Source of the DNA: an uncultured Clostridia bacterium
Lineage (GTDB): Bacteria > Bacillota > Clostridia > Lachnospirales > Anaerotignaceae
Length of the DNA: 54,390 nucleotides
Direction: 5' to 3'
Assembly (NCBI GenBank): GCA_944380455.1
Contig: CALWHR010000055.1
Coordinates: forward strand, 1 to 54,390
The position numbers were made by a program, and so were the translations under genes. The notes beneath the pieces are model-generated. The model was not told the origin of the DNA. It saw nothing but the letters and a program-made list of their open reading frames with translations, and ran no database searches. Shown here piece by piece: positions 1-4,127 of this stretch (positions are counted from its first letter, which is position 1; each line of letters starts with the position of its first letter).

Positions 1-1076
1 GCAAAAGGTTTACCTCAAATGATATAAATTCTAAAAAGTATTTATTAAATTGCTTAAATGGTGTTTTAAGCTTTGAAGATGGCAGTATAAAGCTATTGCC
101 GCACTCATCAGAGTACATTTTTGATTACTGTATTGAAGCTGAATATGAAGAAGGTGTTATTTGTGAAGCAGAAAATTTTGAAAGATTTTGTTTAACCTCT
201 TTAGGTGGGGTTGAAAGCAAAAAGAAACTTCTTTTAGAGTTTTTTGGTTATTGTCTTAGTGACAGTAATGATGCTAAAAAAATACTGTTTTTAAATGGAA
301 AGCCAAATTCAGGAAAAAGCATTGCATTAAAGTTTTTACAAAGATTGGTTGGTGAGGATAAAGTGTCAAATATACCAATTCATGAGTTAAGTACGCCTTT
401 TAATCGTGCACAACTATTTGGAAAAAAGATTAACATACAGGCTGAAATGAAAACATCACCTCTTAATGATATTTCTATTATTAAAGCAATTACAGGCGGA
501 GATAAAATTACAGCAGAGTACAAAGGACAAGATTCATTTTCTTTTATGCCAAAGTGCAAACTTATTTTTGCTGGAAATGCTTTGCCTGCTACAACTGATT
601 TTGAGGCTACAAAAGCTTTTACAAACAGACTTGCAGTGTTGCTTTTTAACAAAAGTATTTCTGCCGAAGAACAAGACAAAGAACTTTTAGAAAAGCTTTG
701 GGCTGAAAGAAATGAAATTTTTACATTATCTATAAAAGCGCTATTGGATTTAATTAATAGAGATTATGTTTTTACATCAAATGAAGATTCCGAAAGATTT
801 ATAGCTGCTTATTCTATGGATGCTGATCCTGTTGGGTGTTTTTTAAATGAAGAAATTAACTTTATACCAAGTGGTAATATTCCGGTAAGAGATTTTTATG
901 AAAGTGTAAAGACATATTGTATACAAAACGGATTTTCTGTACCAAATGACAGGGATATAGGAAAGGCACTTTTGGAAAAATACAATATACCTAAAAAACG
1001 AATTAATAAAGACGGGTTAAACGTGTACAGATTTGTTGGCATAGACTATAAAGAAAGAGGTGAAAATAATGCCTAA
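1..1076 (+). CDS. D5/P4-family phage or plasmid primase-helicase, C-terminal part (5' end outside window)
   Basis: The frame is open from base 3, so the gene enters from the left edge; the TTG at 96 is not a credible start because conserved sequence (NCLNGVLSFEDG) lies before it. This part has the helicase superfamily 3 core of D5/P4 proteins: a Walker A loop (FLNGKPNSGKS, about 276-310), a Walker B-like segment (INIQAEM) and a sensor motif (KLIFAGNALP). Such proteins unwind and prime element DNA during its own replication. The stop overlaps the start of the recombinase gene by 8 bp, so the two are translationally coupled. The family is clear; the exact element type is not. Confidence 0.85.
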   Translation, partial: KRFTSNDINSKKYLLNCLNGVLSFEDGSIKLLPHSSEYIFDYCIEAEYEEGVICEAENFERFCLTSLGGVESKKKLLLEFFGYCLSDSNDAKKILFLNGKPNSGKSIALKFLQRLVGEDKVSNIPIHELSTPFNRAQLFGKKINIQAEMKTSPLNDISIIKAITGGDKITAEYKGQDSFSFMPKCKLIFAGNALPATTDFEATKAFTNRLAVLLFNKSISAEEQDKELLEKLWAERNEIFTLSIKALLDLINRDYVFTSNEDSERFIAAYSMDADPVGCFLNEEINFIPSGNIPVRDFYESVKTYCIQNGFSVPNDRDIGKALLEKYNIPKKRINKDGLNVYRFVGIDYKERGENNA

Positions 1077-2013
1077 AATTGAGTTTTTTATAGAAAAATG
1101 GATAGAAAAAAAGGAAGATTTTATATCTCCAAACACGCTGTTAAGTTATAAAAGAGCTTTAAGAATAATTGAAGGCTCAGAAGCACTTAATGTTTCCATT
1201 GATAAGATTTGTCCGTATAATCTTGAAATCTTTATAGAAGAGATTAAAGAAGTTTACAGCCCATCAACAATTAAAATTTGCACAGTAGTAGTTAAAGGCG
1301 GTCTTAATATTGCTAAAGAACAAGGATATATTGAAGATATTCCTGTTTGGAAGGCAAATATAAGTACAAATAACGAAAAAAGAGCTCTTGAAAAAGATGA
1401 GTTAGAAATATTTTTGAGTTTGATTAAAGGAAAAAGCTTTGGAAACTTACTTGCCTTTCAGGTATCAACAGGCATGAGGATAGGAGAAGTTATAGGGTTA
1501 ACATGGGACTGCATAGATTTTGAAAGCCATGAAATAAATATTATTAAATCAGCACGTCGTGAACAAAACAAAGTAATATCAGTTTTGCCTAAAAATAATA
1601 AATGCAGAAAAATCCCATTAAATAATATGGCAGAAGAGATACTTCTTAATCAAAGGGCTGTATATAGAAAACTTTGCTGCAGAAAAGGCTTTTATGACAA
1701 AAATTTAGTATTTCCAACAAAAGCCGGAAAATGCTATGATACCTCTTTCTTAAATAAAAATTTAAAAGAAGTTTCCAGAAATATGGAAGAATATTATTTT
1801 AAGAAAGGTATTAATAAAAAATTCAGCTTGTCAACACATATACTTCGCCATACATATGCAACACGTTTAATGGAAAAAGGTGTTTCTCTAAAAACAATAT
1901 CAGAGCTTCTTGGTCACTCTTCCATAGTTACAACATCTGATACATATTGCCACGTTTCTGAGCAGCAAAAGAGCTTAGCAGCAAATTTATTCCAAGTTTC
2001 AAGTCCATTATAA
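1069..2013 (+). CDS. Tyrosine recombinase (phage-type integrase)
   Basis: A 314-residue integrase with an N-terminal SAM-like core-binding domain (about 1-100) and a C-terminal catalytic domain. The active-site set is complete: Arg in STGMRIGE, Lys in the beta-hairpin LPKNNKCRK, His-x-x-Arg in HILRHTY, His in LGHS and the nucleophile Tyr in SDTYCHV. I chose the ATG at 1069 because AGAGG stands 8-9 bp before it; an in-frame GTG at 1060 lies in the ribosome site. It overlaps the primase by 8 bp. Its target site is unknown, and it shares the element with a serine recombinase, so one of the two may serve a nested or older element. Confidence 0.9.
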   Translation: MPKIEFFIEKWIEKKEDFISPNTLLSYKRALRIIEGSEALNVSIDKICPYNLEIFIEEIKEVYSPSTIKICTVVVKGGLNIAKEQGYIEDIPVWKANISTNNEKRALEKDELEIFLSLIKGKSFGNLLAFQVSTGMRIGEVIGLTWDCIDFESHEINIIKSARREQNKVISVLPKNNKCRKIPLNNMAEEILLNQRAVYRKLCCRKGFYDKNLVFPTKAGKCYDTSFLNKNLKEVSRNMEEYYFKKGINKKFSLSTHILRHTYATRLMEKGVSLKTISELLGHSSIVTTSDTYCHVSEQQKSLAANLFQVSSPL

Positions 2014-2243
2014 AACTATTTATAAAGATAGGATATAATTTCAATATGTTTTAAATTATTTATTGGTTTTTGGAATTTAGACCTTAAAATGTATGTATTT
2101 ATAAGGGTTTTGCTGTGTTCCATAAATTTACAGCATATAGAAAAACCAGTACTCATGGAATTAAAGTTTATTGTAAAAATTAATATTAGTTAGGCATAAA
2201 GCATAATTTTAAATATAAGCTTTTGGACAAGGAGGGCATTGTT
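2014..2243. other. Gap with an imperfect hairpin, no gene seen
   Basis: AT-rich spacer of 230 bases after the integrase. A stretch at about 2103-2150 can fold with GGTTTT and GCTGT on the left arm and ACAGC and AAAACC on the right. This could be a weak terminator or part of an attachment site for the tyrosine recombinase. No promoter is convincing. Confidence 0.3.
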
Positions 2244-3988: not shown

Positions 3989-3990
3989 AG
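3978..3990. other. Putative right attachment junction (att site) inside spoIIID
   Basis: The reading frame matching SpoIIID begins with the His-Lys-Asp codons at 3984. Codons before it (Leu-Ile-Thr-Thr-Lys) do not match SpoIIID, which has Ser-Lys-Ser-Thr-Val at this place in Bacillus subtilis. The crossover is thus near ACC/CAT at 3978-3986. The exact core cannot be fixed without the left end. Confidence 0.6.
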
Positions 3991-4127
3991 ACATTACCGA
4001 CCGTGTTGAGCATATAAATCCAAATCTGGCACGTCAGGTAAGAGGTGTTCTTGAGGTAAACAAAGCTGAAAGACACATAAGAGGCGGAATTGCCACAAAG
4101 AATAAATATCTGCATATGAAAAATTAA
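3984..4127 (+). pseudogene. spoIIID: spoIIID, 3' part only (gene split by the element)
   Basis: These 47 codons have no start codon or ribosome site of their own. They align by eye without gaps to the C-terminal half of B. subtilis SpoIIID: shared are HKD, the INP-LA block, the RH-RGG block and the ATK-KY block. SpoIIID is the small DNA-binding regulator that acts in the mother cell together with sigma-E and helps switch on sigK. The split falls just after Ser-Thr-Val of the recognition helix, so the missing 5' part should code for about 37 residues at the far end of the element. A terminator follows, as for an intact gene. Excision would restore the frame if the crossover is precise; this is inferred. 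Confidence 0.88.

What the first reader, a model, noticed from the sequence alone, without database searches (positions are those of the whole stretch)
1..4127. A serine-recombinase element splits spoIIID: a possible skin-like developmental switch
The last 47 codons of spoIIID follow a large serine recombinase with no start or ribosome site. The match to SpoIIID is gap-free by eye. Known sporulation switches of this kind interrupt sigK (skin) and some later genes such as spoVFB, spoVR, gerE and spsM. I do not recall a report for spoIIID, which acts before sigK. Excision in the mother cell would restore spoIIID and place sporulation under recombinase control. The cell line that forms the next generation would keep the element.
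Basis: partly seen in the sequence, partly recalled or inferred. Interest (0 to 1): 0.93.

Follow-up and report, generated by a model that had tools for sequence, protein, structure and literature searches.

The report
Mobile element splitting sporulation gene spoIIID
In this bacterium and many related Clostridia, a mobile DNA element lies inside the only copy found of spoIIID, a key spore-formation regulator, almost always at the same codon, and it is predicted to cut itself out in the mother cell so that the gene would be rejoined and a spore could form.

Summary
The window holds codons 38-84 of spoIIID behind a large serine recombinase. Codons 1-38, with promoter, lie on another contig of the same draft; no intact copy was found. 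A same-genus species has the empty site.

The system is widespread. Of 80 genomes with the nearest recombinases, 63 hold spoIIID only as two halves cut at His38; in 36 of the first 50, both lie on one contig, co-oriented, 3.8-34.9 kb apart. The attachment arms form an imperfect inverted repeat around an invariant CA. In 73 of 97 loci scanned there is an unnamed 44-77 aa protein whose gene has a sigma-E-type promoter (63 of 66 upstream regions, 35 of 1,584 control ORFs); I propose it is the excision factor. SpoIVA persists in 47 of the 50 hosts tested. Element DNA is more alike between species than host DNA, so the elements move; some carry anti-phage cargo.

Best reading: a mobile, skin-like intervening element family aimed at spoIIID, excised in the mother cell through sigma-E-driven expression of the small protein. 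Site, anatomy and mobility are shown; excision, its timing and the protein's role are inferred. No excised junction was found. Seven literature searches listed no report of a split spoIIID.

The parts
3984..4127 (+). 3' part of spoIIID, codons 38 (His, CAT) to 84 plus stop; no start of its own
   Evidence: PF12116 69.6 bits; partner 5' part at G000:C64 1145-1032 minus; empty site in G001
3959..3985 (+). element-side arm of the right attachment site (attR) and the crossover CA of the His38 codon
   Evidence: arm matches the reverse complement of the left arm on C64 at 19 of 26 positions; 20 pairs (G000 among them) average 17.45 of 26, range 11-20; shuffles 7.1 +/- 2.2, highest 17; CA in every 3' half read. 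The exact cleavage point is inferred.
2453..3988 (+). large serine recombinase, 511 aa (MNIAAYCRVS...; Ser10 as catalytic residue is recalled from the family)
   Evidence: Resolvase, Recombinase and Zn_ribbon_recom domains; of the best 80 loci kept (of 236 relatives) 76 have a spoIIID 3' part downstream, a 77th runs off a contig end inside it
2244..2390 (+). small protein of 48 aa ('HNPN' family), proposed excision (recombination directionality) factor
   Evidence: family in 73 of 97 loci scanned; in 6 of 59 genomes (G000 counted), each with both spoIIID halves and no intact copy; no Pfam or NCBIfam match; role inferred
2181..2210 (+). sigma-E-type promoter upstream of the small gene: TAATATTA, 12 nt, GCATAATTTT
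   Evidence: B. subtilis consensus as printed in PMC3416734: TYATATTT / KCATANANTN (passage); spacing 12 +/- 1 (PMC517825, passage); same geometry in 63 of 66 upstream regions of the family; coordinates. Not tested for activity.
2402..2434 (+). stem-loop plus T-run (terminator-like, read by eye) between the small gene and the recombinase gene
   Evidence: sequence
1069..2013 (+). tyrosine recombinase (phage-integrase family), cargo or second recombinase of the element
   Evidence: PF00589; also in G003 (98.4%) and G009 (61.5%)
3..1076 (+). DUF5906/D5_N primase-helicase-like ORF, cut by the contig start; cargo
   Evidence: 553-aa relative in L036

Best explanation
A mobile element sits in spoIIID at codon His38, and its serine recombinase is predicted to excise it in the mother cell, helped by a small partner protein likely made from a sigma-E promoter, so that spoIIID would be rejoined before it is needed. 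Steps. (1) Shown in 36 relatives: the element lies between the two halves of the only spoIIID copy found, and the halves have the same orientation, so recombination would delete the element rather than invert it; in G000 the halves are on two contigs. (2) Shown: the arms flanking the crossover form an imperfect inverted repeat around CA, the architecture of a serine-recombinase attP, and the target codon lies in the conserved SKSTVHKD stretch. (3) Inferred: in vegetative cells the recombinase alone cannot recombine attL with attR. (4) Inferred from promoter sequence: after asymmetric division sigma-E turns on both the small protein and the 5' half of spoIIID in the mother cell; the small protein is the directionality factor; excision makes an 84-codon spoIIID driven by its own sigma-E-type promoter. 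Unlike CD1234 of C. difficile skin, this switch cannot depend on SpoIIID itself. (5) Inferred: the forespore keeps the element, so it is inherited at little cost to sporulation. (6) Shown: the elements differ from their hosts in descent, so they move between species, and they sit at this codon with rare exceptions. In many relatives the recombinase has a sigma-A-like upstream region; in the window's own subtype it lies 62 nt behind the small gene and could be co-transcribed with it from the sigma-E-type promoter.
For: Both halves and no intact copy: G000; 46 of 50 and 17 of 30, i.e. 63 of the 80 genomes with the nearest recombinases; G226, one contig of 4.07 Mb, has halves 65 kb apart and no intact copy. 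36 of the 50 have both halves on one contig, same strand, 5' before 3', 3.8-34.9 kb, median 12.3 kb. Same codon in the 5' and 3' halves read, the decayed C53 copy apart. Inverted-repeat att arms: 20 pairs, mean 17.45 of 26, shuffles 7.1. Small-protein family in 73 of 97 loci and, in 59 genomes, in 6 of the 7 with both halves and in none with an intact gene. Sigma-E-type pattern TA-N16-CATA upstream: 63 of 66 against 35 of 1,584 control ORFs, 1 of 76 recombinase upstreams, 51 of 57 spoIIID, 16 of 23 spoIVA. Host sporulation genes retained: SigE, SigF- and SigG-like factors, SpoIIGA and SpoIVA in G000; SpoIVA in 47 of 50 and in 44 of the 46 with both halves. No stops in 82 3' halves and 24 5' halves. 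Precedent: CD1231 constitutive, CD1234 under sigma-E and SpoIIID (PMC5025042, abstract and passages).
Against: No excised junction or free circle was found: a narrow attP-like pattern gave 0 exact matches in viral contigs and, in 392 genomes of the order with 2 mismatches, 2 matches that are both attL. Because the elements transfer often, intact reading frames and low dN/dS (3' 0.140, 5' 0.130 split; 0.126 and 0.116 intact) may reflect recent insertion rather than selection in the split state. G017 is split but has no small-protein match, so another factor must serve there. 5 of 80 genomes hold an intact spoIIID: in one the recombinase is elsewhere (L058), in one the contig ends at the core (L120), and in three the intact copy lies in sequence 70.9% or 77.7% alike or unmatched to the split locus, probably from another organism. 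11 of 80 show one half only and 1 shows none. In the window's genus the spoIVA control region did not show the pattern (L155, L160, L161 among 7 misses of 23; start codons there are uncertain). The -10 is shared with sigma-K (PMC3789822, passage), so sigma-K control is not excluded. The related sequences are not independent, so the promoter counts overstate the evidence.
Confidence: 0.77

Rival explanations
1. The element is an ordinary mobile island that uses spoIIID as a conserved landing site and simply destroys it; carriers lose sporulation, and the halves look intact because insertions are recent.
For: Frequent horizontal transfer: element genes 96.8-99.3% vs spoIIID 3' half 82.6% between G000 and G003; no correlation of recombinase and spoIIID similarity (rho 0.058, 158 of 999 permutations as high). 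No excised form seen.
Against: A conserved mother-cell-type promoter on a gene inside the element has no obvious purpose under this view. SpoIVA kept in 44 of 46 genomes with both halves. In 63 of 80 genomes the split gene is the only copy.
Confidence: 0.15
2. Excision is stress-induced, as in prophage induction (active-lysogeny type), and its coupling to sporulation is secondary or absent.
For: SP-beta is excised in both ways (PMC6957869, passages); the window element carries a D5-like primase and a tyrosine recombinase.
Against: The small elements listed show no phage genes by eye; a scan of IMG/VR that finds close relatives gave only 4, at 67%, while the same query gave 236 in genome contigs. 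SOS-type control was not looked for.
Confidence: 0.06
3. The split is an assembly or binning artefact.
For: G000 is a fragmented draft with halves on two contigs.
Against: Same codon in dozens of independent assemblies, on contigs of 3.2, 4.1 and 6.3 Mb among them; identity to G003 drops from 96.8% in the recombinase gene to 82.6% in the spoIIID part; empty site in G001.
Confidence: 0.01

Closest known systems
skin element of Clostridioides difficile (sigK; recombinase CD1231, RDF CD1234)
   Same: Splits a mother-cell regulator; large serine recombinase; RDF under sigma-E while the recombinase is constitutive (PMC5025042, abstract and passages).
   Different: Target is spoIIID; CD1234 needs sigma-E plus SpoIIID, which could not work here; sequence likeness of CD1234 and the small protein was not tested.
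gin element of Bacillus cereus (gerE; GirC/GirX)
   Same: Non-phage intervening element with restriction-modification genes, inverted-repeat att sites, serine recombinase plus RDF (PMC5595907, passages).
   Different: Target gerE; 28.6 kb with three serine recombinases; here 3.8 kb upwards, usually with one recombinase of this family beside the 3' half.
SP-beta prophage in spsM, vfbin in spoVFB, yin in yabG
   Same: Site-specific interruption of a mother-cell sporulation gene (PMC6957869 and PMC10747680, passages).
   Different: Phage or prophage-like; here the target is the regulator spoIIID of the sigma-E regulon, and the small elements show no phage genes by eye.
fdxN element of heterocyst-forming cyanobacteria (XisF)
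   Same: Gene reconstitution by a serine recombinase (nitrogen-fixation genes: PMC6957869, passage; XisF as its recombinase from the NCBIfam name); XisF model hit 127.3 bits.
   Different: Cut-off 375 not reached; other target and organism.
SCC elements (Ccr recombinases)
   Same: Mobile cargo islands with a serine recombinase; CcrB model hit 139.3 bits.
   Different: Cut-off 900 not reached; other target site; no developmental control that I recall.

Membership tests
Sporulation gene-intervening elements (skin type) | Element splits a mother-cell sporulation gene, halves in the same orientation | tested here: met
   36 of 50 genomes with both halves on one contig, same strand, 5' first; empty site in G001. 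In G000 the halves are on two contigs, orientation unknown.
Sporulation gene-intervening elements (skin type) | Only copy of the gene; rejoining restores the frame | tested here: met
   G000: none intact in an 88.6% complete assembly; 75 of 80 genomes without an intact copy; joined frame 84 aa.
Sporulation gene-intervening elements (skin type) | Serine recombinase encoded in the element; att sites with inverted repeat and shared core | tested here: met
Sporulation gene-intervening elements (skin type) | Recombination directionality factor | tested here: inconclusive
   Conserved small protein with the expected promoter type; activity not tested; predicted model is one long helix at mean pLDDT 77, pTM 0.40, uninformative.
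Sporulation gene-intervening elements (skin type) | Excision during sporulation in the mother cell | not testable with these tools
   No reads or expression data; attP pattern searches negative.
Sporulation gene-intervening elements (skin type) | Mother-cell (sigma-E or sigma-K) control of recombinase or RDF | tested here: inconclusive
   Promoter-type sequence only.
Large serine recombinases | Resolvase + Recombinase + Zn-ribbon domains | tested here: met
   119.3, 85.9 and 52.6 bits, all above cut-off
SCC / Ccr recombinase elements | Ccr equivalog score | tested here: not met
   139.3 of 900 (CcrB), 126.6 of 900 (CcrC)
Prophage | Phage structural genes, or the recombinase found in phages | tested here: inconclusive
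   4 relatives at 67% in IMG/VR; best phage record, 55.8%, carries a spoIIID 3' half and sporulation-like neighbours, so looks chromosomal; small protein absent from phage records; full gene content of G000's element not available.

The most novel reading that the evidence does not exclude
spoIIID of gut Clostridia is a landing hotspot for self-excising DNA islands that behave like DNA introns: they carry anti-phage cargo, jump between species, and pay for their place by tying a new family of excision factor to sigma-E, so that an early mother-cell regulator exists only after DNA splicing. Successive insertions leave serial promoter-plus-5'-half modules, making the locus a growing, development-gated defence array.
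Probability: 0.5. Interest if true: 0.92.

Novelty: new variant of a known kind. Interest (0 to 1): 0.84.

Why it matters
Sporulation intervening elements that I found in print split sigK, spsM, spoVFB, spoVR, gerE and yabG (passages). Here spoIIID is split, in many species, several from human and animal guts by their record titles, by elements that still move. If true, spore formation in many commensal Clostridia depends on a DNA excision step that gene annotation would show only as a missing or truncated spoIIID. It would also supply a new family of serine-integrase directionality factors with matching recombinase and att pair (a possible recombination tool), and show how mobile defence cargo can settle in an important developmental gene at little cost.

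Tried and rejected
Excised form in public data: attP-like patterns in viral contigs (0) and 392 genomes of the order (2 hits, both attL). Intact spoIIID copies in G640, G644 and G649 as the excised state: rejected, sequence too different from the split locus. dN/dS as proof of selection in the split state: computed but weak, since the elements move. For that count I dropped duplicate loci, the decayed C53 copy and L046, L047, L048 and L055 (extra or cut copies); one of the 24 '5' halves', L054, is cut by a contig end rather than split. Phage origin. A sigma-E promoter directly on the recombinase: 1 of 76 upstream regions; 63 of 76 have TAACAGA, 51 of 76 a TATAAT-like box, 28 of 76 a strict sigma-A-like pattern against 92 of 1,584 control ORFs (ORFs of 100 aa or more, both strands, real or not). 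Structure of the small protein: one helix, no use. Spore formation of named isolates: three paper searches gave nothing usable (0, 0 and 20 papers, listings only). The first SpoIVA control crashed and was redone.

Literature: seven searches listed no report of a split spoIIID; the library lacks most subscription papers. Seen by passages: PMC5025042, PMC10747680, PMC6957869, PMC5595907, PMC3789822, PMC517825, PMC12888040 (notes strain differences in spoIIID of Anaerostipes hadrus without describing a split) and PMC3416734. The rest were seen as listings.
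Full report
What is there. Window 2453-3988 encodes a 511-aa large serine recombinase and 3984-4127 the last 47 codons of spoIIID, without a start. The own genome has codons 1-38 with a promoter at contig C64 (1145-1032, minus), a decayed third copy at C53, and no intact gene. G001, same genus, has the empty site, and the alignments of both flanks meet at the His38 codon. The rejoined reading frame is 84 codons, in register with the intact protein of G001.

It is general. 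With the recombinase as query the best 80 of 236 loci of genome contigs (75-98% identity) were kept; 76 carry a SpoIIID 3' part downstream, L104 also does at a contig end, L120 ends at the core, L058 and L081 sit elsewhere. PF12116 over all 80 genomes, in two calls: 46 of 50 and 17 of 30 have both halves and no intact copy; 3 and 8 have one half only; 1 (G076) has none; 5, all, have an intact copy (G628, G640, G644, G649, G652). G076 (Christensenella) also lacks SpoIVA and has the recombinase at another site. Two of the 80, G059 and G060, hold the same loci as G003 and G009. In 59 genomes searched as G000 and its relatives, both halves without an intact gene occur in 7: G000, G003, G007, G009, G017, G019 and G028; several drafts show one half. 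In an even sample of the class 148 of 196 genomes have spoIIID; among the matches shown, G000, G148, G158, G159, G226 and G253 have no intact copy (the list was cut).

Architecture. In the halves whose sequence I read, the 5' ones end at STVH and the 3' ones begin at the same His codon, the decayed C53 copy and one of the G091 copies apart. The arm after the left crossover, reverse-complemented, matches the arm before the right crossover at 17.45 of 26 positions on average (20 pairs, range 11-20; shuffles 7.1, sd 2.2, highest 17), as expected for one attP; 18-nt arms of intact genes match at 3-10 positions. CA is present in every 3' half read. 36 of 50 genomes have both halves on one contig in the same orientation, 3.8-34.9 kb apart, median 12.3 kb.

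A small partner gene. An ORF of 44-77 aa, median 58 (consensus KKRKLNYRFHNPNTAEVTADYLLKILIEAN..KVE.AIQ), occurs in 73 of 97 loci scanned. Of the 24 without it, 5 hold only the other end, 17 have at most 4.5 kb before the recombinase (the gene can lie 0.2-8.7 kb before it), and L040 and L050 are left as true absences as far as the loci reach. In the 59 genomes it occurs in 6, all split; G017 is split without it. Recombinases at 46% identity or more occur in 8 of those 59, each with a split or half spoIIID; two at 35 and 40% sit in genomes with an intact gene. Upstream, aligned on CATA (65 of 66 regions), TA stands at -18/-17 in 97-98% with GGACTATTTT around it. TA-N16-CATA at 30-75 nt before the start: 63 of 66 distinct regions, 35 of 1,584 control ORFs, 1 of 76 recombinase upstreams, 51 of 57 spoIIID upstreams; 16 of 23 spoIVA upstreams (20-95 nt). 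Related sequences are not independent. In the window the site is TAATATTA-12-GCATAATTTT at 2181-2210; the B. subtilis consensus printed in PMC3416734 is TYATATTT / KCATANANTN (passage) with optimal spacing 12 +/- 1 (PMC517825, passage).

Mobility. Between G000 and G003 the element genes are 96.8-99.3% identical, the spoIIID 3' half 82.6% and the next gene 86.3%. Over 72 loci recombinase similarity does not follow spoIIID similarity (rho 0.058; 158 of 999 permutations as high), and recombinases 99% alike sit in spoIIID genes only 56% alike at the DNA level (L066 and L044). So the family moves, and intact halves alone do not prove selection for rejoining.

Hosts keep sporulation genes. G000 has SigE (389.5 bits, cut-off 348.6), SigG- and SigF-like factors (SigF below cut-off), SpoIIGA (below cut-off, adjacent to sigE) and SpoIVA; no sigK reached the cut-off. 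SpoIVA is present in 47 of 50 genomes, in G081 as two pieces.

Cargo. Of ten cargo proteins that I picked from elements or their G003 counterpart, 7 matched PADLOC families (type II methyltransferase, AbiLi, AbiLii, a methyl-directed restriction enzyme, SoFic and two weaker ones), and Pfam named RloB, HepT-like, Schlafen AlbA_2 and Fic among others. This is a chosen, not a random, set. By eye, two small elements (G017, G019) carry metabolic-looking genes instead.

How it most likely works is given in the best explanation: constitutive or co-transcribed recombinase, sigma-E-made small protein as directionality factor, excision in the mother cell, retention in the forespore. The closest experimental model is C. 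difficile skin, where CD1231 is constitutive and CD1234 is under sigma-E and SpoIIID (PMC5025042, abstract and passages); here SpoIIID could not take part. Excision itself was not seen.

Verdict. The split, the codon, the att architecture, the partner gene and the mobility are shown from sequence; the developmental excision and the partner's role are inferred. I rate it a new variant of the known kind of sporulation intervening element.

Noticed in passing
L177 (G091:C2:60000-76000); rows of G630, G631, G637, G648; G000 C64 and C53; L037: Several genomes have two or three 5' halves; in G091 a ~200-bp module (spoIIID promoter + 5' half + left att arm) stands three times in series, 86-95% alike, separated by ORFs that look by eye like toxin-antitoxin and restriction genes. 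How the modules multiply is unexplained.
   Followed up: partly
L046 (G010:C37) 27-212 and 7758-7945: A 5' half with a left att arm lies 7.6 kb upstream of an intact spoIIID, with no recombinase of this family in the locus: perhaps a relic after loss of an element.
   Followed up: partly
G081:C20:236830-237279 and 489491-489769: SpoIVA is found as two pieces 252 kb apart on the same strand in this genome, whose spoIIID is also split.
   Followed up: no
L182 (GenBank MT838016.1): Record labelled Bacteriophage sp. holds a relative of the recombinase (55.8%) followed by a spoIIID 3' half, so it looks like a chromosomal contig.
   Followed up: yes
upstream of the recombinase gene in most relatives: TAACAGA in 63 of 76 upstream regions, resembling the att arm (GTAACAAAATAGAACGG): possible recombinase binding and autoregulation.
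   Followed up: partly
L047, L052 after the STVH codon: A different left-arm sequence follows the same codon in these two, so another recombinase family may use the same site.
   Followed up: no
G000:C83: spoIIGA-sigE present, but no sigK match above the cut-off in the draft.
   Followed up: partly
L058, L081 downstream of the recombinase: Two relatives of the recombinase sit outside spoIIID; L081's genome has no spoIIID match, L058's has an intact one.
   Followed up: yes
PMC12888040 (passage): Anaerostipes hadrus strains that differ in spore formation also differ in spoIIID; whether an element is involved was not checked.
   Followed up: no
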